DNA of 64,000 bases from Streptomyces sp. DI166 (GTDB lineage Bacteria > Actinomycetota > Actinomycetes > Streptomycetales > Streptomycetaceae), in contig NZ_FLSP01000010.1 in assembly GCF_900091315.1 (NCBI RefSeq), forward strand, positions 62,001 to 126,000, in the 5' to 3' direction. Numbering within the stretch: the stretch's first letter is position 1; every line of letters begins with the position of its first letter. A model generated the notes under the pieces. The model was not told where the DNA came from. It did no database searches and saw nothing but the letters and a program-made list of their open reading frames with translations. This document shows, in pieces, positions 17,523 to 64,000 of this stretch. The translations under genes were made by a program, and so were the position numbers.

Positions 17523-17615
17523 CCGGATCGCACACGGTCACGTCGCGATTCCGCGCCGTTGTCGGTGCGGTGGTGCACACTCCGAACCAGGTGGTAATTG
17601 CCTGGGGAGGACTAC

Positions 17616-53497: not shown

Positions 53498-53551
53498 AAC
53501 AGTTTCGCTGCAGGTCAGGCACCCCGGCGCCGCGTTGTCAGTGGTCTCCCC

Positions 53552-53590
53552 TAAAGTTCCCGTCACTTGATCGACGAAGTGACGGGGAGG
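53552..53590 (+). promoter_or_regulatory. -10 box, dyad and ribosome binding site of the MoxR-vWA operon
   Basis: TAAAGT (53552-53557) is a -10 candidate. CCGTCACTT (53560-53568) and AAGTGACGG (53577-53585) are perfect 9-base arms around an 8-base loop. The right arm shares its last two G with the GGGGAGG ribosome binding site (53584-53590). It may be an operator at the transcription start or a 5'-end hairpin that hides the site. Confidence 0.6.
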
Positions 53591-53595
53591 CACCT

Positions 53596-54450
53596 GTGGG
53601 GTGGGTGAGCGCGGGCGACTACGAGGTCGCGCTGGACGCGGGGAAGGTCGTGTGCCGCAACGCGGCCGGGCGGCGGCTGAAATCGGTGCCGGCCAAACTC
53701 GCCGACGAGCCCGCGGTGGTGGGCCTGCGTCAGCTCGCCGAGTGGCTCCAGCGGCACGAACGGCAGTGCCTGACCGACGTGGAGCGCTGGATGGTGCGCT
53801 CCCTTCCGGTGCCGCTCGCGGTGATCGCCCGGGTGTGGCCGGACCCGGCCTGGCAGGCGGCGCTGCGCGACCTGGTGGTCACCGGGCCGGACGGTGAGGT
53901 CGCCGGGTTCCTGCGGGACGCCGACACCGAGCGCGGACTCGGTCTCGTCGATCTCGACGGCGACACCGTGCGCATCAGCCCCGACCTGGTGCGCATCCCC
54001 CACCCGGTGCTGCTGGAGGACCTGGAGGAACTGCGGGAGTTCGCCGTCGAACTCGGCGTCGAGCAGCGCGCCCAGCAGCTGTTCCGCGAGGTGTGGCACC
54101 GCCCGGAGAACCTCGGCGCGGACGCCACCTCCGTCGACGAGTACGCGGGCGGTGTCTTCAAGGAACTGCGGTTCCTGGCCGGACGGGTCACCCAGCTCGG
54201 TTACCGGGTGCGCGGCGGCGACGCCGTGTGCGCGCTGCGCGAGGACGGGCGCGCGATCGAGGCCCGCGTCTGGATCGGCGACTACGAGACCTACATGGAG
54301 ACCGAGACCGGCCCGCTCACCTGGACGGACGACGCCGGGAAGATCCTGAGGCTCGGTCAGGTCGGGCCGGTGTCCTGGTCGGAGGGCATGCGCATGGCGG
54401 CCGCGCTGTACGCGGGACGCGACATCGAGGACGAGGAGAAGGCCGCGTGA
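53596..54450 (+). CDS. DUF4132 domain-containing protein
   Basis: Protein of 284 aa, first gene of the MoxR-vWA operon. The second half is DUF4132-like: LREFAVELGVEQRAQQLFREVWHRP, then GVFKELRFLAGRVTQLGYRVRGGDAVCALREDG and ARVWIGDYETYMETETGPLTW. DUF4132 occurs in MolR/YehI-type proteins next to MoxR ATPases. No signal peptide or membrane segment. The GTG start follows GGGGAGG at 5 bases, and its stop overlaps the next gene (GTGA). Confidence 0.78.
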   Translation: MGWVSAGDYEVALDAGKVVCRNAAGRRLKSVPAKLADEPAVVGLRQLAEWLQRHERQCLTDVERWMVRSLPVPLAVIARVWPDPAWQAALRDLVVTGPDGEVAGFLRDADTERGLGLVDLDGDTVRISPDLVRIPHPVLLEDLEELREFAVELGVEQRAQQLFREVWHRPENLGADATSVDEYAGGVFKELRFLAGRVTQLGYRVRGGDAVCALREDGRAIEARVWIGDYETYMETETGPLTWTDDAGKILRLGQVGPVSWSEGMRMAAALYAGRDIEDEEKAA

Positions 54451-57400
54451 CCACCTACGACGAAACCACCGCGGCCGCCCTGCTGGACGCGGGCGCGATC
54501 CTCCCGCCGGGCGCCACCTCCCGCGAGGACGCCGACACCCTCACCGTCCGCACGTACACCCACCCCGCCCTGGACGAGCGGCCGGTCGTCCGGCTGGTGC
54601 CGGGCACGCTCGGCGAGGCGGAGGATCTGGCCCTGGAGTTCCTGGGGCTCGGCCGGGACCCGGAGGCGCCCGAGGTCGGGCAGGTGCGGCGGGAGACGCT
54701 CGGCTTCCCCGCCTGGGCACTGGTCCACGACCCGGCCAACGGCCACCACGCGCTCGCCCTGGTCAAGGACGTGGAACGGCTCTCCCGGCAGGCCAAGTCC
54801 CGCCCCGGCGCGGCCAAGGACGGCTTCGAGGAGCTGGGCGAGCGGCTCGGCCGTGCCGTCCCGCACTTCCTGCCGACGTTCTACGAGCAGGCCGCGCGGG
54901 TCTTCCTCCAGCACGAGAACACCACGTACGCGGCGGCCTTCTTCGGCAAGGCGCGCGAGGCCGAGCGGGTGCACGCGCTGACCGTGGACGAGGAGCGGCA
55001 GCGTGCGGTGTTCCTGGAGTTCGCCTTCGCGGGGGCGCTGACCGTCAAGGCGCTCAAGGAGCACGTGAAGGCCCTGTCCCAGCGGCTCGACCCGGCCGAG
55101 GCGTGGGCGCAGTACCGGCAGTTGACGGTGGAGCGGTGCGCGGCGGGCATGCCGCCGTACGCCTCGCTGCCGCAGGACGCCCGCGGCCTGATCAAGGCGG
55201 CCGGTCTGAACCGGGTGGCCGAGGAGTGCGCGCTGGTCGCGGACCTGATCGCCTCCCCGGCGGCGGTGCGCGCGCCCGCGTCCTTCTGGAACACCTATCG
55301 CGCCACCCTCGCCGTGCTCGCCAAGGAGCGCCCGGAGACGCGCGTCCGGCTGCTGGAGATCATGCCGTCCGGGCTCGGACGCTCCGTCGAGGACGACGAG
55401 TTCTGGCTGGCGCTGCTCGCGGAGACCGGCGCGGACCGGCTGCTGACCGGTGAGGACGAGGGGCCGGTCGACGCGGCGGACTGGCTGAGCCGGTGGGCCA
55501 CGTACCGCAAGCACGGCGCCGCTTCCGCCAAGCGCTCCCCCGCCACGCTCGCGCTGGTGGAGCGGATGGCACCGCGGCTGCGCGCGGACGGACGGCCGGT
55601 CGACCTGTTCGTCGGCCGTTGGCACGCAGGCGCCGATCTGGACCTGCTCGACCTGTGCGCGGCCGAGGGCGTCCCGCTGTCGGTCCCCGACCGGGACACC
55701 CCCGTCCATCTGGATCTCGACCGCTGGCTGGGCGAGAGCCGGGGACGCCGGGACCTGGTGGCCACCGCCGCCGACCCGCGACTGCGGCGCCTGATCTACG
55801 AGGAGCTCGGCAGCCTCGGCCGGGGCCAGGTGCCCCAGTACCGGCAGGAACAGATCGCCGAGCATCCGGTGCTGAGCGGAGTGCTGCGGGAGTGGATCGC
55901 CGACCGGGCCGAGGAGTACACCCGCGCGACCGGGCTGCCCGCCGTCAACGCGGCCCTGGACCGGCTGCGCATCTACCGCTCGGTCGCCGCCCAGGTCCAC
56001 GGCGAGGCCGTGGCGAGGGTCACCGCCCACGACCTCGCCCCGCTGCTGGGCCGCACCCTGCGCACGGGCATCATGGCCGAGCTGGGCTGGCCCGCCCTGG
56101 ACGAGGCGTTCACCCGGCTCGGCCCCGAGGTCCTGCCCAAGGGACAGCGCAATCATCTGCTCGTCACCGAGGCATGGCCCGCCCTGATCCTCTGCCGGGG
56201 CAACAAGGCGGTCGTCGTCGGCCCGGACAGCGTGCTGCTCGAACACGAGCTGCGCGTGCCGGTCCCGCTGGACCAGTGGAACCGCCCGCGCTTCCGCTAC
56301 ACCGACGGCGAGCTGCTGGTGATGTGGCAGCAGGACGGGAAGGAGCACGGCTACTGGTCGTCCCGGCCGTCCGAGGTGTTCACCGTGAGCGGTGAACACG
56401 TGGGCTACTGGTACGGCAATCAGCTCGACGCCCCCTCGGTCCCGCTGCCCGGCGGCGGCCGGGCCACCGGTGGCCGCACGCTCCACGCGGGCGACACCGT
56501 CCTGCCCCCGAACCGCCCGGTGCTGAGCGACGGCACCACGCTGTGGCGCCAGGGGCGGGACGGCATCCGGCAGGTGTGGCTGGAGTACGACCCGGCGACC
56601 GGTGCCCACGGCCGCGCCTCGCTGCCCGCGTTCCTGCGGTCCGGCATCTGTGAGGGCGCCACGCTCGACCAGCATCTGTGCGAGGTGCTGCCGCTCCAGC
56701 CCGGTCTGGAGAACACCCCGTTCGGCACCGACGGCACCGTCCTCGGCCGCTGGGTGCGCACCGCGGCCGAGGACGAGCGGGTGACGACCGCCGGAACGCC
56801 GGACGGCCGTACGGTCACCCTGCGCGCCAAGGGCGTTCCGCTCGGCGCGCTGCGGCTGCCCGGCGGCGCCGAGCCCGTTGTCGCGCAGGTCGGCTCGCAC
56901 ATCGCCCTGTTCGCCGCCGACGACACCTCGGACGGCGCTCAGCTCACCCGCGTCACCACGGGCGAACAGCACGGCGAGTTCGACAAGGAGTTGCCGTATC
57001 TGCCCCCGCCGGCGTTCTGGCACGCGCTGCGGCCCCGCGACGAGCGGGGCTCGGCGGCCCTGCGCGCCCTGAGCGACGAGCGCGCGGCCGAGCTGCTGCG
57101 GGTCGGCGCCGCCGCGGTGGCCGAGTACCACGCGCAGGTCGCCGCCACCAAGTCGTTCGAGGGGAAGGCCAAGATTCCCAGCACGCCGAGGTTCGTCCTG
57201 ACGGCTGTCCGCAAGGCGCTGCCGGAAGTGACCGACGAGCGGCTGCTCATCGGTGTCACGGTGGAGGTCCGTGCCGCGCAGCACATCATCGAGCAGGCCG
57301 CCGCCTTCACGAAGCGGCCCGCCGAGCAGCAGCCCGCGACCCGGAAGCAGCCGGTGCGGGAGATGTTCGCCGACTATCGCCCGCGGCACGGCGACGACCG

Positions 57401-59399
57401 CACCCTGCTCGACGCGGCGGACGGGCTGGCCCGGATGTGGGGCGGCTGGGGCGGCAAGGACCAGTGGAGCGCGCTGCGCCAGATCCGCGCGGTGAACCAC
57501 GTTCTGTCCGGGCTCCCCGCCGAGGGCCCCGCGCTGACCGCCGAGCACAAGGCGTCCGCCGGCGACGGCTGGATCAGCGACGGGCACACGATCCCGCGTA
57601 TGGGCCCGACTTGGCCGTCGCTGCTCGACGCGGTCCGGCCGCTCGCCTACCGGGCCGCTCTGCCCGCGGTGTCCGACGAGCACCGCGAAGCGCTGGTGCT
57701 GCTGTTCGAGGCGTTCGCCGAGGGGCATCTCGCCAAGGGGGAGAACCTGCGCGAGGTCGTCCTCGGCGAGCCGCACGACAATCAGCAGCGGACCGGGCAG
57801 GTACTGCGCCGCGACGGGCGCACGGTCGTCGTGCTCGGCTGCCAGAACATCGACAACGCCAAGGGCCGGGTCAACTGGCTGGCCCTGGACCACGACCCGT
57901 CCGGCGCGTTCGGTGCCGTCGCCCACTTCACCCTGGAGCAGGAGAAGCGGTTCGCGCGGGCCTTCCCCGACGACGGGCTCGCCGCCCTGGCCCGGCTGAT
58001 CCGGGACAAGGGCGCCGCGCCCTGGCGGCCCGAGGCGATCGGGGCGTTCGCCGCCGGGACCGGGGGCGGACTGGGCCCGCTCCAGGCGGGCGTGCTGCTG
58101 GCCGCGCTGCCGCAGGACCGCGACCGGGCGCTGGAGCTGCTGGGGCTGAAGCCTCGTCAACTCGACCGGGCGAACGGCATGCTGGGCTCGCTCGACCAGC
58201 AGGACCGGGCGGCACTGCTGTCCGCCCTGCTGCCCGCCGAACCCGCCGACCTGTGGTCCACCGGCCCCGACGTGGCGGCCGCGAGCCGGGGGTGGGCCGA
58301 ACGGTTCGGCTCGGTCGTGCGGATCCCCGAGGAGCTCTCGGACGACCTGGCGGGGCTGCCCGTGCAGTCCGCCGACGCGGTCCTCAACCCCGCCCGCACC
58401 CGCTGGATCAGCGGCACCACGGCCCTGTGCCACGACAAGGACGGCAACCTGGCCGAGGAGGACCCGGCGGCCGCGGTCGGCGGGCATCTGCTGTCCAACG
58501 CGGTCGACGCGCTGGTCTCCCTCGCCTACGCCCTGCCGTACGGGCACCGGTTGCGCGCCGTCCTGCCGGAGGGGCTGGCCGCGCTGCGCCGCCGGATCGC
58601 CGACCCGCAACTGTTGCTCACGGTCGGCGCCGAGTGGACCGAGAAGGGCCGCCAAACCGCCCTGGAGTTGCGCACAATGTACGGCCTCGCGGAGTCCGGC
58701 GGCGGCGACGAACTCGGCCTGGTCCGGCTCAGCGAGACGCTGGTCCTGCGGCCCTGGTACCGCGACCGGGAGTCGCCGGTGATCCGCACGGCCGCCCTCA
58801 CCGGCCCGGACGACCCGGTGTTCGGGCTCCTCCAAGGGCTAGCGGGTCCGCTGCGCGCCGGTCTCGACGGACTGCGGGCGCTGCTCGCCGACGATCTCAC
58901 CCGTACGGTGACCGCGGGCCTCGACCCCGAGGGACCCACCGGTTACGCCCAGGACCCGACGTCCGTCGTGCCGGACCTGGTCCGCGAGGTCGCCGCGGAC
59001 CGGGGGCTGAGCGAGGACGCGGCGGCGCTGTACCTGCAGTTGCTGGCGCTGCCCGATCCGACGGACCGCAACTGCGCCCGCTGGACCGGCTGGAAGCCCG
59101 CGCGGCTGAAGAAGGCCCGGGCCGAGCTGGCGGCGACCGACCTGGTCGTCGAGGCCAAGCGGGCCCGCGCGGGACGCACCCTGTTCCTGCCCGGCCCCTG
59201 GCGTGACCTGAAGGGCTCCGCGCTGCCGATCGAGGCGTGGAAGGAGGGCCTGTTCCCGGTCCCCGGCAACGCGCGCGCCGTCCCGCACCTGCCGCTGCCC
59301 GAACTGTTCGCCCGCGCCTGGAAGCGCATCCAGGACGGCGACAGCCCGGCCTACGAGGAACTCGTCACGCGCGCCACCCGGAAGGGCCGCCGCCGATGA
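54447..59399 (+). CDS. Giant DUF4132/YehI-like protein of the MoxR-vWA operon
   Basis: Protein of 1650 aa, not assignable to a known enzyme. It is soluble, with helical repeats in the first half (EEYTRATGLPAVNAALDRLRIYR), a beta-rich middle (about 580-830) that reads like a propeller or sensor (FRYTDGELLVMWQQDGKEHGYW, VGYWYGNQLD), then DGLARMWGGWGGKDQWSALRQIRAVNHVL. The last 120 residues (WTGWKPARLKKARAELAATDLVVEAKRARAGRTLFLPGPW) look like a winged helix. No Walker motif, membrane segment or signal. Position and size fit the YehI-type partner of MoxR. GTGA and ATGA overlaps on both sides imply equal, coupled production. Confidence 0.8.
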   Translation: MTTYDETTAAALLDAGAILPPGATSREDADTLTVRTYTHPALDERPVVRLVPGTLGEAEDLALEFLGLGRDPEAPEVGQVRRETLGFPAWALVHDPANGHHALALVKDVERLSRQAKSRPGAAKDGFEELGERLGRAVPHFLPTFYEQAARVFLQHENTTYAAAFFGKAREAERVHALTVDEERQRAVFLEFAFAGALTVKALKEHVKALSQRLDPAEAWAQYRQLTVERCAAGMPPYASLPQDARGLIKAAGLNRVAEECALVADLIASPAAVRAPASFWNTYRATLAVLAKERPETRVRLLEIMPSGLGRSVEDDEFWLALLAETGADRLLTGEDEGPVDAADWLSRWATYRKHGAASAKRSPATLALVERMAPRLRADGRPVDLFVGRWHAGADLDLLDLCAAEGVPLSVPDRDTPVHLDLDRWLGESRGRRDLVATAADPRLRRLIYEELGSLGRGQVPQYRQEQIAEHPVLSGVLREWIADRAEEYTRATGLPAVNAALDRLRIYRSVAAQVHGEAVARVTAHDLAPLLGRTLRTGIMAELGWPALDEAFTRLGPEVLPKGQRNHLLVTEAWPALILCRGNKAVVVGPDSVLLEHELRVPVPLDQWNRPRFRYTDGELLVMWQQDGKEHGYWSSRPSEVFTVSGEHVGYWYGNQLDAPSVPLPGGGRATGGRTLHAGDTVLPPNRPVLSDGTTLWRQGRDGIRQVWLEYDPATGAHGRASLPAFLRSGICEGATLDQHLCEVLPLQPGLENTPFGTDGTVLGRWVRTAAEDERVTTAGTPDGRTVTLRAKGVPLGALRLPGGAEPVVAQVGSHIALFAADDTSDGAQLTRVTTGEQHGEFDKELPYLPPPAFWHALRPRDERGSAALRALSDERAAELLRVGAAAVAEYHAQVAATKSFEGKAKIPSTPRFVLTAVRKALPEVTDERLLIGVTVEVRAAQHIIEQAAAFTKRPAEQQPATRKQPVREMFADYRPRHGDDRTLLDAADGLARMWGGWGGKDQWSALRQIRAVNHVLSGLPAEGPALTAEHKASAGDGWISDGHTIPRMGPTWPSLLDAVRPLAYRAALPAVSDEHREALVLLFEAFAEGHLAKGENLREVVLGEPHDNQQRTGQVLRRDGRTVVVLGCQNIDNAKGRVNWLALDHDPSGAFGAVAHFTLEQEKRFARAFPDDGLAALARLIRDKGAAPWRPEAIGAFAAGTGGGLGPLQAGVLLAALPQDRDRALELLGLKPRQLDRANGMLGSLDQQDRAALLSALLPAEPADLWSTGPDVAAASRGWAERFGSVVRIPEELSDDLAGLPVQSADAVLNPARTRWISGTTALCHDKDGNLAEEDPAAAVGGHLLSNAVDALVSLAYALPYGHRLRAVLPEGLAALRRRIADPQLLLTVGAEWTEKGRQTALELRTMYGLAESGGGDELGLVRLSETLVLRPWYRDRESPVIRTAALTGPDDPVFGLLQGLAGPLRAGLDGLRALLADDLTRTVTAGLDPEGPTGYAQDPTSVVPDLVREVAADRGLSEDAAALYLQLLALPDPTDRNCARWTGWKPARLKKARAELAATDLVVEAKRARAGRTLFLPGPWRDLKGSALPIEAWKEGLFPVPGNARAVPHLPLPELFARAWKRIQDGDSPAYEELVTRATRKGRRR

Positions 59400-60610
59400 C
59401 GACCGCCCCTGCCTCCGTCCCCTCCGACCGACCGGAAGAACCACCGACGATGACCACCGCCGCACCGGCCCGCCAGATCGTCCCGCCGGAGGATCTGTAC
59501 GCCACCGAACTGGCCTTCCTCGCCGCCTACGACGACGGCCCCCGCCCGCCCGCCTGGCGGCTCACACCGCGCGCCGTCGTCACGTTCGTGATGGGCAGCG
59601 GCGGGCAGCCGCTGAAGCTGCCCGACTCCGCCGAGGCACCGGAAGGGGTGCCTCGGCGGCTGGAGGTGTCGGCGAAGTTCGTCGGCGACCGCGCGCTGGT
59701 CGAGCGGTGCGTCGTCACCCTGGCCGGAGAGCGCGGACTGCTGCTGGTCGGTGAGCCCGGCACCGCCAAGTCCATGCTCTCGGAGCTGCTGTCGGCCGCG
59801 GTGTGCGGCACCAGCGGCCTGGTCGTGCAGGGCACCGCGGGCACCACCGAGGACCAGCTCAAGTACGGCTGGAACTACGCCCTGTTGCTGGCCCAGGGAC
59901 CGAGCCGGCAGGCCCTGGTGCCGTCGCCGGTGCTGACCGCCATGAGCCGCGGCGCCATCGCCCGGGTCGAGGAGGTCACCCGCTGTCTGCCCGAGGTGCA
60001 GGACTCGCTGGTGTCGCTGCTGTCCGAGCGGCGGATCGCGATTCCGGAACTGGCGGGCGGTCAGGAGTCGTTGGCGCACGCCGCGCCCGGCTTCAACCTC
60101 ATCGCCACCGCCAACCTGCGCGACAAGGGCGTCTCGGAGATGTCGGCCGCGCTCAAGCGCCGCTTCAACTTCGAGACGGTCGGCCCGATCGCGGACCTCG
60201 ACGCCGAGACCGCGCTGGTGCGCAGCCAGGCCCGCGCCTCGGTGGAGCGGGCCGGTGCCGCCTTCAAGGTCGACGACGCGGTACTGGAGGCGCTGGTGAC
60301 CGCGTTCCGGGACCTGCGCGAGGGCCGGTCCGCGGAGGGCTGGGAGGTCGAGCGGCCGTCCACCGTGATGAGCACGGCGGAGGCGGTGTCCGTGGCGGGC
60401 GCCCTGGGCCTGGCCACCGCGTACTTCCCGGGCGACCACGACGTGCTCGGACTGCTGCCCGGCCATCTGCTCGGCGTGGTCCGCAAGGACGACCCGGCCG
60501 ACGCGGCCCGGCTGCGCGGCTACTGGGACGGCCCGGTCCGGCGCCGCGCCGAGCAGGGCTCCGCGACCTGGCGCACCCTGTGGGACCTGCGCACGGTGCT
60601 GGAGGACTGA
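59396..60610 (+). CDS. MoxR-type AAA ATPase (YehL-like)
   Basis: ATPase of 404 aa. Walker A is LLVGEPGTAKSMLSELLS (about residue 119; Ala replaces the usual Gly). The Walker B region is GAIARVEEVTRCLPEVQDSLVSLLSERR, with Glu-Glu where most MoxR have Asp-Glu. Sensor 1 is FNLIATANLRDKGVSEMSAALKRRFNF, also containing the arginine finger. MoxR ATPases act as chaperones with vWA partners. Its ATG overlaps the previous stop; a second ATG at 59450 is possible. The next gene begins 4 bases later. Confidence 0.9.
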   Translation: MTTAPASVPSDRPEEPPTMTTAAPARQIVPPEDLYATELAFLAAYDDGPRPPAWRLTPRAVVTFVMGSGGQPLKLPDSAEAPEGVPRRLEVSAKFVGDRALVERCVVTLAGERGLLLVGEPGTAKSMLSELLSAAVCGTSGLVVQGTAGTTEDQLKYGWNYALLLAQGPSRQALVPSPVLTAMSRGAIARVEEVTRCLPEVQDSLVSLLSERRIAIPELAGGQESLAHAAPGFNLIATANLRDKGVSEMSAALKRRFNFETVGPIADLDAETALVRSQARASVERAGAAFKVDDAVLEALVTAFRDLREGRSAEGWEVERPSTVMSTAEAVSVAGALGLATAYFPGDHDVLGLLPGHLLGVVRKDDPADAARLRGYWDGPVRRRAEQGSATWRTLWDLRTVLED

Positions 60611-60614
60611 CGCC

Positions 60615-63600
60615 GTGTCCCTCTCCCCCGACGAGGCCGTGACGGCCCTCACCGACCCGGCCGCGCCGTACCTCATCGGCGTACGGCACCACGCGCCCTC
60701 CCTGGCCGCGGCCGTGCCCGCGCTCCTGGAGGCGGCCGAGCCCGATGTGCTGCTGGTGGAGCTGCCCGCGGAGATGCAGGAGTGGCTGCCGTGGCTGGGC
60801 CACGCCGAGACCCGGGCGCCGGTCGCTCTCGCGGCGGCGCCCACGGGCCAGGAGACGGCCGCCGGACCGGCGTTCTACCCGTTCGCCGACTTCTCGCCCG
60901 AGCTGGCGGCGGTGCGCTGGGCGGACCGGCACGGGGTGCCGGTCGTCGCGTGCGATCTGCCGCTGGCGGACCGCGCGTGGGCCGAGGGACGGACGGCGGC
61001 ACGGTCGGCATCCGTGGGCCCCGGGATCGCCGACGCGCTGCGCGCCCGGCTCACCGGCCGCCCGGGGGACGATCTGTGGGACCGGCTCGTGGAGGCCACC
61101 GCCCCGGGCTCCCCGCCCGAGGCGCTGCGCCGGGCGGCGCTGCTCACGGGCTGGGCGCTGCGCGAGGACGCGACGGCCTGCGGGGGCGTGCCCGAGCTGG
61201 ATCTGCGGCGCGAGCGGTGGATGCGGGCGCGGATCGCGGAGGCCATCGCGCGGGGGGAGCGAGCGGCGGTGGTCGTGGGGGCGTTCCACGCTCCGGCACT
61301 GTTGTCGGGGGACACCGAGGTCGAGACGGTCGCGGGCACGCACTGGACCACCTCCCTGATTCCCTACGCCTACTCGCTGCTGGACGAACGCTCCGGGTAT
61401 CCGGCGGGCATCCGCGACCCCGAGTGGCAGCACCTGGTACTGGAGGCGGGCGGGGAGCCGGACGCTCTGGAGGAGGCGCTGACGCGGGCGGCGGTGCGGG
61501 TGTGTGCCGAGCTGCGGTCGCTCGGACATCCGTCGGGGCCCGCCGACGCGCGGGAGATCAGCCGTCTCGCCGGTGATCTGGCCCGGCTGCGGGGGCTGCC
61601 CGCGGCGGGGCGCGGAGAGCTGGTCGAGGCGGTGCAGACGGTCCTCGCGCAGGGCGAACCGTACGGCAGGGGGCGGGCGGTGGCCCGCGCGATGGAGCGG
61701 GTGCTCGTCGGCACCCGGGTCGGGCGGCCCGCGCCGGGCGCGCCCCGCAGCGGCCTCGCCCCGGCGGTGGAGGCCGAGGTCGCGGCGCTCGGTCTGCCGG
61801 GGCCGGACGACGGGGCGGCACGGGATCTGCGGCTCGATCCGCTGCGGTCGGACCTGGACCGGCGGCGCGAGCTGCTGATGCGGCGTCTGACGGTGTGCCG
61901 GGTGCCGTACGGGCAGGCCCAGGAGGTGACCGGGGCGGGCGGCACCGAGGCGCTGACCTCGCGCTGGGAGGTGCGCTGGACCCCGGCGACGGCGGCGATG
62001 CTGACCGCGGCCGGGGTGCGCGGGGTCACCGCCGCGCAGGCCGCCGAGGGCGTGCTGCGGGAGCGGCGGCGGGCGGAGCTGGACGACGGCGGGTGTACCG
62101 CCGAGCAGGTGCTGCGGGGCCTGCGGGAGGCGGCGGAGTGCGGTCTGCCCGCGCTCGCGGACGAGCGGCTCGCCGATGTCGCCGACGTGCTGCCGAACTC
62201 CGGCACCCTGCCCGAACTCCTCGCCGGGCTCGCCCTGTTGGACCGGGTGCGGGCCGGACACATCGCCGGGCTCGGGGTCGAGAAGGACCGCGGCGCACGG
62301 GCCGTCGCGGTGGCCGAACTGCTGACGTCCGCCGCGGTGCGCCAGGTGGACGGGCTGACCGGGTCCGAGGACCCTTCCGACGCCCACGCCCTGCTCGAAC
62401 TCGCGCACCGCGCCGACCTGTTGGGCGGTATCCGGCTGACCGACGCGCTCGCCCGGCTCGCCGCCGACGGCTCGCCGCTGATGCGGGGCGCCGCCGGGGC
62501 GGTGCGGGTGCTGCTCGGGCACGAGGCGCCGGAGGCGCTGGGCGGCCGGATCGCCTCCTGGGTGGACTCGGCGACCGGCCCCGAGGCGCGGTCGGCGCTG
62601 GCCGCCCGGCTCGCGGGCGTGCTGACCGCGGCCGGGCCGCTGCTGGAGTCGGCGCCGGCCGCGCTGGAGCCGCTGCTGGGCCGGGTGGTGGAGCTGGCGG
62701 ACCGGGCCTTCCTGGACCGGCTGCCCGCGCTGCGCGGGGGCTTCGACACCCTCAGTCCGGCCGCCCGCGAACGGCTGCTCTCCACGGTGGAGGACCGTCT
62801 GGGCGGCGGGCGCCACGTGACCGACACCGGCGATGTGGATCCCGTCGCGCTGGCCACCTGGACCCGCGCCGACCTGGCGGCGCGGGCGGACCTGGACCGG
62901 CTGGGGCTGCTGCCGTCGCCGCGCGGCGCGTCCGCGGAGCCCGAAGCGCCCAGGCCCGTACCGGACCTGCCGGACCGGCAGCTGTCCCCCGCCGATCGCT
63001 GGCGGCTGGTTCTGGGGCGGCGGCAGGACCGGCTTCCGCCGTCGGCCGCCGGGTTGGCGACCGCGCTGGACGAGTTGTACGGCTCCGGGCGCGGCGAGGG
63101 CAGCCGGGGCGGGCTGCCCGGTTCGGGCGGCGGCCGCGAGGCGCCGTATCCCGGTGTGCGGGAGTGGTCGGAGGAACTGGCCGCGCTGTTCGGGCCGGGG
63201 ATCCGGGAGGAAGTGCTGGCCGCGGCCGCTGCCGAGGGCCGTACCGATGTGCTCGCCGAGCTGGACCCGCAGAGCGTGCGGCCCTCGGTGGACCTGCTGC
63301 GGACGGTGCTCCGGCACGCCGGAGGGCTGCCCGAGGCGCGGCTGGCCGCGCTGCGGCCGCTGGTGCGGCGTCTGGTGGACGAGCTGACACGGGAGCTGGC
63401 CACCCGGCTGCGGCCCGCCCTGCACGGCACCGCGCTCCCCCGGCCGAGCCGCCGTCCGGGCGGCGGCCTGGACCTGCCGCGCACCCTGCGCGCCAACCTG
63501 GCCACCGCGCGACGCGGGGAGGACGGGCGGGTCGTGGTCATTCCGGAGCGGCCGGTGTTCCGCACCCGGGCCAAACGGGCGGCGGAGTGGCGGCTGATCC

Positions 63601-64000
63601 TGGTCACGGACGTGTCCGGGTCGATGGAGGCGTCCACGGTGTGGGCGGCGCTGACGGCCTCCGTGCTGGCAGGGGTGCCGACGCTGTCCACGCACTTCCT
63701 CGCCTTCTCCACGAAGGTCGTCGACCTCACCGACCACGTCGACGACCCGCTGTCGCTGCTGCTGGAGGTCAGGGTCGGAGGCGGCACGCACATCGCGGCG
63801 GGGCTGCGGCACGCGCGTGAGCTGGTGACGGTGCCGTCGCGCACGCTCGTGGTGGTGGTCAGCGACTTCGAGGAGGGCTACCCCGTCGGCGGGCTCCTCG
63901 CCGAGGTGCGCGCCCTGGTCGGGGCGGGCTGTCAGGTGCTGGGCTGCGCGAGCCTCGACGACGCGGGCCGGCCCCGCTACTCCACCGGCGTCGCGGGACA
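60615..64000 (+). CDS. DUF5682-vWA fusion protein, 3' end beyond the window
   Basis: Open frame of at least 1128 codons, no stop to the window edge. Residues 1 to about 750 are DUF5682-like (YLIGVRHHAPSLAAAVPALLEAAEPDVLLVELPAEMQEW, VVACDLPLADRAW, AAVVVGAFHAPALL). From about 995 a vWA domain starts: LILVTDVSGSM with metal-site residues Asp999, Ser1001 and Ser1003, Thr1058 in VGGGTHIAAGL, and Asp1084 in VVVVSDFEEGYP. In E. coli the equivalents YehM and YehP are separate. The GTG start follows GGAGG at 9 bases and lies 4 bases after the MoxR stop. The vWA presumably binds MoxR or the client. Confidence 0.85.
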   Translation, partial: MSLSPDEAVTALTDPAAPYLIGVRHHAPSLAAAVPALLEAAEPDVLLVELPAEMQEWLPWLGHAETRAPVALAAAPTGQETAAGPAFYPFADFSPELAAVRWADRHGVPVVACDLPLADRAWAEGRTAARSASVGPGIADALRARLTGRPGDDLWDRLVEATAPGSPPEALRRAALLTGWALREDATACGGVPELDLRRERWMRARIAEAIARGERAAVVVGAFHAPALLSGDTEVETVAGTHWTTSLIPYAYSLLDERSGYPAGIRDPEWQHLVLEAGGEPDALEEALTRAAVRVCAELRSLGHPSGPADAREISRLAGDLARLRGLPAAGRGELVEAVQTVLAQGEPYGRGRAVARAMERVLVGTRVGRPAPGAPRSGLAPAVEAEVAALGLPGPDDGAARDLRLDPLRSDLDRRRELLMRRLTVCRVPYGQAQEVTGAGGTEALTSRWEVRWTPATAAMLTAAGVRGVTAAQAAEGVLRERRRAELDDGGCTAEQVLRGLREAAECGLPALADERLADVADVLPNSGTLPELLAGLALLDRVRAGHIAGLGVEKDRGARAVAVAELLTSAAVRQVDGLTGSEDPSDAHALLELAHRADLLGGIRLTDALARLAADGSPLMRGAAGAVRVLLGHEAPEALGGRIASWVDSATGPEARSALAARLAGVLTAAGPLLESAPAALEPLLGRVVELADRAFLDRLPALRGGFDTLSPAARERLLSTVEDRLGGGRHVTDTGDVDPVALATWTRADLAARADLDRLGLLPSPRGASAEPEAPRPVPDLPDRQLSPADRWRLVLGRRQDRLPPSAAGLATALDELYGSGRGEGSRGGLPGSGGGREAPYPGVREWSEELAALFGPGIREEVLAAAAAEGRTDVLAELDPQSVRPSVDLLRTVLRHAGGLPEARLAALRPLVRRLVDELTRELATRLRPALHGTALPRPSRRPGGGLDLPRTLRANLATARRGEDGRVVVIPERPVFRTRAKRAAEWRLILVTDVSGSMEASTVWAALTASVLAGVPTLSTHFLAFSTKVVDLTDHVDDPLSLLLEVRVGGGTHIAAGLRHARELVTVPSRTLVVVVSDFEEGYPVGGLLAEVRALVGAGCQVLGCASLDDAGRPRYSTGVAG

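What the first reader, a model, noticed from the sequence alone, without database searches (positions are those of the whole stretch)
53596..64000. MoxR-vWA operon with DUF4132, a 1650-residue partner and DUF5682
Four genes with 4-base overlaps or gaps encode a DUF4132 protein, a giant soluble protein, a MoxR-type ATPase and a DUF5682-vWA protein. As I recall, the same module is E. coli yehI-yehL-yehM-yehP-yehQ, whose function is unknown. MoxR-vWA pairs act as chaperone-type machines, and related ternary systems have been proposed for conflict or stress responses. The giant second protein with a sensor-like middle could be the specificity component. A SWIM zinc-finger gene would be expected just past the right edge.
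Basis: partly seen in the sequence, partly recalled or inferred. Interest (0 to 1): 0.85.

Follow-up and report, generated by a model that had tools for sequence, protein, structure and literature searches.

The report
DNA-damage-controlled MoxR–vWA machine in Streptomyces
Five overlapping Streptomyces genes encode a large ATP-driven protein machine related to an unexplained E. coli gene cluster, and a conserved DNA-damage-type promoter in front of them suggests that the machine is switched on to deal with damaged DNA.

Summary
Genes for a DUF4132 protein, a 1650-aa protein, a YehL-type MoxR ATPase and a DUF5682-vWA fusion overlap or abut; the predicted SWIM gene starts just past the edge, cut by the contig end. 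The module matches E. coli yehI-yehQ in four parts; the giant has no E. coli counterpart and holds a predicted beta-propeller.

It is exact in 27 and within one mismatch in 37 of 45 distinct orthologous operons; backwards control 0. All 23 DUF5682 systems of the sampled same-genus genomes, of four architectures, carry such a site; outside the genus only 4 of 26. The genome has 36 exact sites (control 0), some before recA, uvrA, uvrB, ruvC and ung, and a pafBC-like locus. The DUF5682 N-terminal domain looks like a Tiki/TraB hydrolase. Best reading: a DNA-damage-induced AAA+ remodelling and hydrolase machine. Regulation is well supported by sequence; induction is untested and the substrate unknown.

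The parts
53535..53557 (+). RecA-NDp (PafBC-type) promoter, TTGTCAGTG-N8-TAAAGT
   Evidence: The only exact match in the window; 0.02 matches expected by chance at up to 1 mismatch, 2 found. Before orthologous operons: 27 of 45 exact, 37 of 45 within 1 mismatch, 42 of 45 within 2; backwards control 0 of 45 within 2. One of 36 exact sites genome-wide, control 0.
53596..54450 (+). Gene 1: small DUF4132 protein, 284 aa
   Evidence: Pfam DUF4132 7.2e-30; matches the C-terminal part of the YehI family, hhalign 97.8%.
54447..59399 (+). Gene 2: 1650-aa protein; conserved N-terminus, helical parts, predicted beta-propeller (about residues 540-865), conserved C-terminal region (about 1500-1600)
   Evidence: No Pfam family above cut-off and no NCBIfam match at E 0.1; AlphaFold model of residues 451-1650, mean pLDDT 85.8; weak propeller matches; conservation profile.
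59396..60610 (+). Gene 3: MoxR AAA+ ATPase of YehL type, 404 aa (P-loop GEPGTAKS)
   Evidence: AAA_5 1.8e-37; 46% identity to E. coli YehL.
60615..64000 (+). Gene 4: DUF5682 (Tiki/TraB-like N-terminal domain and helical repeats) fused to a vWA domain with MIDAS residues (DVSGS, GGGT, VSDF); ends at 64079, outside the window
   Evidence: DUF5682 1.1e-215, VWA_CoxE 9.4e-65; invariant HH, E, RExxM and GxxH residues in 51 sequences; sub-cut-off TraB matches and a fold match to a TraB protein.

Best explanation
The genes form one operon of the DNA-damage response. Shown by sequence: a RecA-NDp-type promoter, the kind used by PafBC, stands in front of it; the genome has a pafBC-like pair near Pup-ligase-family genes; the promoter goes with the operon in most orthologues. 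Inferred mechanism: when DNA damage activates PafBC, the operon makes a MoxR-vWA AAA+ machine. The giant (propeller, helical arms, conserved C-terminal region) and the SWIM and DUF4132 proteins recognise a target that arises at damaged DNA. The vWA domain docks that target, by its metal-binding site, onto the MoxR ring. ATP hydrolysis remodels the target, and the Tiki/TraB-like head of DUF5682 cleaves or hydrolyses it. The giant is the changeable recognition part; MoxR, vWA and DUF5682 are the constant motor. It is a Streptomyces form of the E. coli yehI-yehQ module, which would then also belong to DNA-damage biology.
For: Promoter: exact in 27 of 45, within one mismatch in 37 of 45 distinct type-B upstream regions, backwards control 0 of 45 within two. 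All 23 DUF5682 systems of the same genus in an even class sample have a site, 20 of them exact; at the observed genome-wide density the chance of an exact site starting in a given 250-bp stretch of one strand is about 0.0005. Positive control: the same motif precedes recA, uvrA, uvrB, ruvC, ung, an O6-methylguanine methyltransferase, an MgsA/RarA ATPase and a DEAD helicase in this genome. The motif is present in 61 of 61 sampled same-genus genomes, 1511 sites against 6 for the control. Two adjacent WYL genes near two Pup-ligase-family genes. Literature: D. radiodurans DUF4132 and WGR genes rise strongly when the damage-response repressor DdrO is depleted, and MolR of E. coli (a WGR protein) was described as a LexA-regulon member (PMC8533742, one passage). 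A LexA-like box precedes yehF. P-loop and MIDAS sequences intact. Tiki/TraB: two GxxH motifs, 13 of 51 members hit the TraB family at E 1 or better, Foldseek match to a viral TraB protein, probability 1.00, rank 5.
Against: No expression data were available; the promoter is inferred from sequence. A paper states that an initial search suggested that the M. smegmatis PafBC motif is not conserved in S. venezuelae (PMC9380542). Outside the genus only 4 of 26 systems have an assigned site within one mismatch. One orthologous locus (L046) keeps the promoter, gene 1 and the giant but lacks MoxR, DUF5682-vWA and SWIM, so the giant can be retained without its own motor. Six orphan relatives of the giant lack the promoter (L105 has only an unrelated one-mismatch site). 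Hydrolase activity is inferred from motifs and a weak fold match; the TraB hit of the window protein does not pass its Pfam cut-off. PMC8533742 itself discusses molybdate for DUF4132 and MolR, though it saw no change of molybdate genes. Nothing tested shows binding to DNA or names a substrate.
Confidence: 0.6

Rival explanations
1. A conflict (anti-phage or self-limiting) system of the MoxR-vWA kind, in which the giant senses an invader and the Tiki-like domain or an unknown activity harms the cell. DNA damage is only the alarm that raises its level.
For: Patchy distribution: P0002 relatives in 28 of 61 close genomes. The giant is less conserved than DUF4132, MoxR and DUF5682-vWA in 205 of 210 non-independent pairs. 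Orphan and duplicated giant copies, and a locus without motor genes (L046). Variable flanks (59 of 134 flank genes are singletons). Published MoxR-vWA ternary systems have a conserved motor and variable further parts (PMC7159879, passages).
Against: No relevant PADLOC match, no VMAP-named Pfam match, no recognised toxin or effector domain in the five proteins; gene 4 matches only 1 phage record, over 15% of its length. The predicted regulon it shares includes recA and excision-repair genes.
Confidence: 0.25
2. A maturation chaperone like NorQ-NorD or RavA-ViaA that inserts a metal or assembles one enzyme complex which is needed after damage.
For: MoxR-vWA pairs are known as such chaperones (PMC3893208, passages; PMC13036017, abstract start in the listing); the vWA model matches the NorD vWA (Z 10.7, rmsd 3.3, 133 aligned), though that part of the model has low confidence.
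Against: No client enzyme gene stands out: operon flanks vary between loci. It does not account for the DUF5682 head, SWIM, DUF4132 and giant proteins.
Confidence: 0.1
3. The promoter motif is a general promoter type and says nothing about DNA damage.
For: 12 of 20 genes scanned downstream of exact sites are not known repair genes, among them a sigma factor, a SUKH protein and MoaA.
Against: Only 36 exact sites in 8.87 Mb, with 8 repair genes among the 20 scanned; PafBC acts through the RecA-NDp motif in mycobacteria (PMC6789036, passages).
Confidence: 0.05

Closest known systems
E. coli K-12 yehI-yehL-yehM-yehP-yehQ
   Same: DUF4132, YehL-type MoxR, DUF5682, vWA and SWIM genes in the same order (yehK lies between yehI and yehL)
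   Different: Streptomyces adds the giant, keeps only the DUF4132 end of YehI, and fuses DUF5682 to the vWA domain; the promoter is PafBC-type
MoxR-vWA ternary conflict systems (VMAP, iSTAND, FtsH, beta-propeller; PMC7159879)
   Same: MoxR plus vWA core with large further parts; a propeller occurs
   Different: No VMAP-, STAND- or FtsH-named match; the propeller sits on a separate protein rather than on the vWA protein; the main text has no occurrence of YehL, DUF4132, SWIM, WGR or Tiki
NorQ-NorD and RavA-ViaA chaperones
   Same: MoxR ATPase with a vWA partner; vWA fold matches NorD
   Different: Extra DUF5682, SWIM, DUF4132 and giant proteins; damage-type promoter; no client enzyme linked
DUF5691-type DUF5682 systems (type C here, e.g. 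L090, L098)
   Same: MoxR, DUF5682, vWA and SWIM; RecA-NDp sites in the same genus
   Different: The further large protein is DUF5691, and in the same genus the SWIM gene is transcribed away from MoxR
Tiki/TraB superfamily
   Same: Two GxxH motifs and a predicted fold match in the DUF5682 N-terminal domain
   Different: Followed by helical repeats and coupled to a MoxR-vWA motor; Pfam score of the window protein below cut-off

Membership tests
E. coli yehI-yehQ-type module | YehL-type MoxR ATPase | tested here: met
   46% identity over 373 columns to YehL; the YehL subfamily is named in PMC3893208
E. coli yehI-yehQ-type module | DUF5682 protein and CoxE-type vWA | tested here: met
   Pfam 1.1e-215 and 9.4e-65; YehM 26%, YehP 36%
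E. coli yehI-yehQ-type module | SWIM zinc-finger gene | tested here: inconclusive
   CxCx5CxH present and the gene conserved in 21 of 24 loci, but Pfam SWIM 11.9 bits against 19.6 and no Pfam match at E 0.1 for the full-length L106 gene
E. coli yehI-yehQ-type module | DUF4132 protein of YehI type | tested here: met
   DUF4132 7.2e-30; hhalign 97.8% to the YehI family; only the C-terminal part is present
VMAP-type MoxR-vWA ternary conflict system | VMAP component | tested here: inconclusive
   No VMAP-named Pfam match at E 1 or better in any of the five proteins; that the library holds such models was not checked
[quoted passage not shown]
   The vWA match ends at residue 1149 of 1154; the predicted propeller is on the giant. 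bpMoxR scores 21.1 against a cut-off of 27
PafBC (RecA-NDp) regulon | tTGTCRGTG-N8-TAnnnT promoter (consensus recalled) | tested here: met
   Exact at 53535-53557; conserved
PafBC (RecA-NDp) regulon | PafBC encoded in the genome | tested here: met
   Two adjacent WYL hits at C58:11251 and 12253 and Pup-ligase-family hits at C58:14754 and 21274, all on one strand; orthology to PafB and PafC was not tested further
PafBC (RecA-NDp) regulon | PafBC-dependent induction by DNA damage | not testable with these tools
   No expression data
Tiki/TraB superfamily (DUF5682 N-terminal domain) | Pair of GxxH motifs (hallmark recalled) | tested here: met
   GVRH and GAFH in the window protein; both histidines and the second glycine invariant in 51 sequences; the first glycine is kept in 87% of 67 rows and is lost in the type-D systems
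Tiki/TraB superfamily (DUF5682 N-terminal domain) | Profile score above the family cut-off | tested here: inconclusive
   13 of 51 members hit TraB and 3 of 51 hit ChaN at E 1 or better; window member 19.1 bits against 26.8
Tiki/TraB superfamily (DUF5682 N-terminal domain) | Shared fold | tested here: inconclusive
   Foldseek rank 5, Marseillevirus TraB protein: probability 1.00, E 4.4e-3, target TM 0.42, rmsd 12.9 over 235 columns; VIA Z 10.8, rmsd 4.7, 207 aligned, to 8b6h_DQ of a complex that contains a TraB-family subunit (that DQ is this subunit was not confirmed)

The most novel reading that the evidence does not exclude
DUF5682-MoxR-vWA-SWIM systems, in at least four architectures with interchangeable large recognition proteins (YehI/DUF4132, DUF5691, this giant, and an unnamed protein of about 475 aa), are an unrecognised family of DNA-damage-response machines. 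Three unrelated regulators have captured parts of them: PafBC in Streptomyces, LexA in E. coli and DdrO in Deinococcus. They use a AAA+ motor and a Tiki-like hydrolase to remodel or cut proteins at damaged DNA.
Probability: 0.45. Interest if true: 0.9.

Novelty: new variant of a known kind. Interest (0 to 1): 0.74.

Why it matters
I found no assigned role for the E. coli yehL–yehQ genes in the listings (one search listed 40 of 693 papers, mostly chance words and names). A conserved damage-type promoter gives the family a testable function and points to which stress, which regulator and which mutants to examine. It also indicates that a RecA-NDp regulon exists across Streptomyces (61 of 61 sampled genomes), where one paper left the matter open. 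If the DUF5682 head is a real hydrolase, this would be a AAA+-coupled hydrolase in the DNA-damage response with a changeable recognition subunit.

Tried and rejected
Giant as a longer YehI or a DUF5691 relative: rejected by profile comparison (hhalign probability at most 0.3% for all four pieces). Giant profile against the PDB sequences: one chance-level match, E 0.13. DUF5682 N-terminal profile against the PDB sequences: only a designed TIM barrel at E 0.044. E. coli YbaP (TraB family) against the PDB found no evident relative, so the identity of 8b6h_DQ could not be checked by sequence. Foldseek of the gene-4 model against the PDB: no match at E 0.001 or better. PADLOC: nothing relevant. TraB family in the own genome: none at E 0.001. 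LexA box test in other Enterobacteria: not possible. RecA-NDp text in PMC8151990: no occurrence. A 10-bp inverted repeat after the -10 element was considered as an operator; by eye its second arm is not kept in most orthologues, so it was not pursued. The giant profile matched only 3 of 149 phylum genomes, all of one genus; the protein search also reached another family of the order.

Full report
1. The observation. The window lies in an unnamed 8.87-Mb genome as C10:62001–126000; the named close relatives of the giant are all Streptomyces (20 of 20 loci). The contig goes on for 514 bases: gene 4 ends at window coordinate 64079 and a fifth gene starts at 64076 with the SWIM-type motif CGCLLAPDCLH. 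Pfam identifies DUF4132, AAA_5, DUF5682 and VWA_CoxE far above cut-off, and nothing above cut-off in the giant.

2. Conservation. Of 24 loci examined for it, 21 hold all five genes in the same order and on one strand; 53 of their 84 junctions are 4-base overlaps by my simple gene caller. L050 and L053 are cut by contig ends. L046 (S. phaeofaciens) is a true exception: promoter, gene 1 and a full-length giant are there, but the next gene is the one that follows the operon elsewhere, and MoxR, DUF5682–vWA and SWIM are missing. MoxR is the most conserved (mean pairwise identity 0.886), the giant the least (0.644). In 205 of 210 pairs the giant is less alike than DUF4132, MoxR and DUF5682–vWA; pairs are not independent, and the SWIM gene (0.671, one copy truncated) is nearly as variable. 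Within the giant, residues 51–200 and 1501–1600 are the most conserved and several middle stretches the least. Flanking genes vary: 59 of 134 are singletons.

3. Relation to E. coli. MG1655 holds yehI, yehK, yehL, yehM, yehP and yehQ in that order. MoxR is 46% identical to YehL, the vWA part 36% to YehP, the DUF5682 part 26% to YehM. The small DUF4132 protein matches the C-terminal part of the YehI family (97.8% probability), whereas no piece of the giant matches the YehI or DUF5691 families (at most 0.3%). The giant is thus an addition, not the missing part of YehI.

4. The promoter. Upstream sequences of orthologous operons share TTGTCAGTG-N8-TAnnnT. This is the RecA-NDp motif; its consensus is recalled (Gamulin 2004, which PMC6789036 cites; an early Streptomyces recA promoter report by Ahel and colleagues is recalled only). 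PMC6789036 states that PafBC activates its targets through RecA-NDp (passages). In the window the only exact match is at 53535–53557, 38 bp before the start codon. Of 45 distinct type-B upstream regions, 27 are exact, 37 within one and 42 within two mismatches; the pattern read backwards gives 0 within two (7 duplicates and 2 loci with too little upstream sequence were dropped).

5. Is the motif a damage promoter here? The genome has 36 exact copies against 0 for the control, and 61 of 61 sampled same-genus genomes have 11–44 copies, 1511 in all against 6. The 30 loci made readable hold 31 of the 36 sites; 27 of these 31 have a called same-strand gene downstream, 26 of them within 105 bp. I scanned 20 of the 27 genes. 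The first ten were mostly picked because they looked like repair genes; eight are: recA, uvrA, uvrB, ruvC, uracil-DNA glycosylase, O6-methylguanine methyltransferase, MgsA/RarA and a DEAD helicase (DinG-like by recall); the others are a WGR–propeller protein and one without a family. The second ten gave no known repair gene: a SUKH protein, a weak HNH match, a sigma factor, MoaA, a weak TPR match and five without a family. Two adjacent WYL genes lie near two Pup-ligase-family genes, the usual pafBC setting.

6. All four architectures. DUF5682 occurs in 31 of 148 class genomes; this genome has three systems. I collected 49 systems; one at a contig end (G181:C264) and one hit below cut-off (G095:C11) were left out. 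Type A: YehI, MoxR, DUF5682, vWA, SWIM. Type B: this one. Type C: SWIM, DUF5691, MoxR, DUF5682, vWA (DUF5691 was confirmed by Pfam in three loci). Type D: a SWIM-like gene, a protein of about 475 aa, vWA, MoxR and a divergent DUF5682. In the same genus all 23 systems have a site at an operon start: A 3 of 3, B 7 of 7, C 11 of 11, D 2 of 2; 20 are exact, 3 have one mismatch. For L006, L142 and L143 the script did not assign the site because the gene start was called wrongly. Checked again, the L006 site lies about 60 bp before the start of the WGR domain of YehI, and in L142 and L143 a SWIM reading frame has a start codon 8 bp after the site, as in the other type-C loci that this check could read (it did not read L144, where one search shows the same spacing). 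In the other genera only 4 of 26 systems have an assigned site (L096 and L155 exact, L150 and L158 one mismatch); L157 and L169 have one-mismatch sites that were not assigned. Over all 49 loci, 20 exact sites were assigned to system genes by script, 2 (L142, L143) to none, and the backwards control found none.

7. Other phyla. A paper on D. radiodurans reports that dr2173 (WGR) and drA0165–drA0166 (DUF4132) rise strongly on DdrO depletion, and that MolR of E. coli was described as a LexA-regulon member; it also discusses a molybdate role but saw no change in molybdate genes (PMC8533742, one passage). In MG1655 a LexA-like box (13 of 20 consensus positions, consensus recalled; one of two such boxes in the 26 kb scanned) ends 7 bases before yehF. 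Whether yehI–yehQ share that promoter is not known. Against this reading, PMC9380542 reports that an initial search suggested the M. smegmatis PafBC motif is not conserved in S. venezuelae; I did not search that species by name.

8. The proteins. DUF5682: in 51 diverse N-terminal domains H11, H12, P14, E35, E82, D100, E146, R185, E186, M189, G208 and H211 are among the invariant columns, a pattern with two GxxH motifs like Tiki/TraB enzymes (hallmark recalled). 13 of 51 hit the TraB family and 3 of 51 ChaN at E 1 or better; the window member is below cut-off. The gene-4 model has mean pLDDT 75; 15 of its first 23 ten-residue blocks are at 90 or more, while the vWA part is mostly between 39 and 74. 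It matches a viral TraB protein (probability 1.00, E 4.4e-3, rank 5) and chain DQ of Tetrahymena complex IV (residues 1–235, Z 10.8, rmsd 4.7, 207 aligned), a complex whose paper lists a TraB-family subunit (PMC10060162, one passage). The vWA part matches CMG2 (Z 13.0, rmsd 2.8, 133 aligned) and the NorD vWA (Z 10.7, rmsd 3.3, 133 aligned) in spite of its low confidence. Giant, residues 451–1650: mean pLDDT 85.8. Model residues of about 90–413 match a spliceosome component, WD-domain and other propeller entries (best Foldseek E 7.4e-4, rmsd 15.5; VIA Z at most 6.1, none of 974 chains at 8), so 'propeller' is a prediction at fold level only.

9. Mechanism. Shown: operon, promoter motif, its company in the genome, intact P-loop and MIDAS sequences. 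Inferred: PafBC control in this organism, assembly of the five proteins, target recognition by the giant and the SWIM protein, remodelling by MoxR, and hydrolysis by DUF5682. I put the damage-response part at about 0.9, the specific remodelling-plus-hydrolase mechanism at about 0.35, and the joint statement at 0.6 as a working explanation. L046 shows that the giant can persist without its own motor; it might use another DUF5682 system of that genome, which was not tested.

10. Known or new. Library searches: DUF5682 and DUF5691 in 0 papers; DUF4132 in 3; two or more of the yeh gene names or DUF5682 in 3; any yeh gene name in 693, of which 40 were listed, mostly chance words. The held main text of the eLife survey of MoxR–vWA conflict systems has no occurrence of YehL, DUF4132, SWIM or WGR. 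I therefore call it a new variant of a known kind: a MoxR–vWA machine with a giant component that no family searched describes, and a damage-type promoter.

Noticed in passing
G000:C37 (L088), G000:C82 (L006): The same genome carries two further DUF5682-MoxR-vWA systems of other architecture, with an exact (L088) and a one-mismatch (L006) RecA-NDp-type site.
   Followed up: yes
L046:9135-15143: Streptomyces phaeofaciens keeps promoter, DUF4132 gene and full-length giant but lacks MoxR, DUF5682-vWA and SWIM there.
   Followed up: partly
L117:1581-3023: A WGR-beta-propeller gene has an exact RecA-NDp site 58 bp upstream; a WGR domain also starts the YehI-type protein L091:3017-6637.
   Followed up: partly
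L135:468-1481: A MoaA (molybdenum cofactor) gene lies 20 bp behind an exact RecA-NDp site; the WGR protein MolR has been discussed for molybdate in print.
   Followed up: no
L100-L105: Stand-alone relatives of the giant (950-1650 aa) without MoxR, DUF5682 or the promoter nearby.
   Followed up: partly
L109:14817-17989, L110:3538-11447: Duplicated giant and DUF4132 pieces next to the operon.
   Followed up: no
window 53559-53586: Perfect 10-bp inverted repeat (CCCGTCACTT / AAGTGACGGG) between the -10 element and the start codon; the first arm is kept in many orthologues, the second mostly is not.
   Followed up: partly
window 17559-17581: One-mismatch RecA-NDp-like site on the + strand.
   Followed up: no
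L126, L129, L133: Genes behind exact RecA-NDp sites also include a SUKH protein, an HNH-like protein and a sigma factor.
   Followed up: no
NZ_CP108277.1, NZ_CP109382.1 and other Streptomyces megaplasmids: Relatives of the giant and of DUF5682-vWA lie near each other on large Streptomyces plasmids; the giant is annotated there as DNA-binding protein.
   Followed up: no
E. coli plasmids CP088875.1, NZ_CP103756.1: YehP-like vWA genes occur on E. coli plasmids.
   Followed up: no
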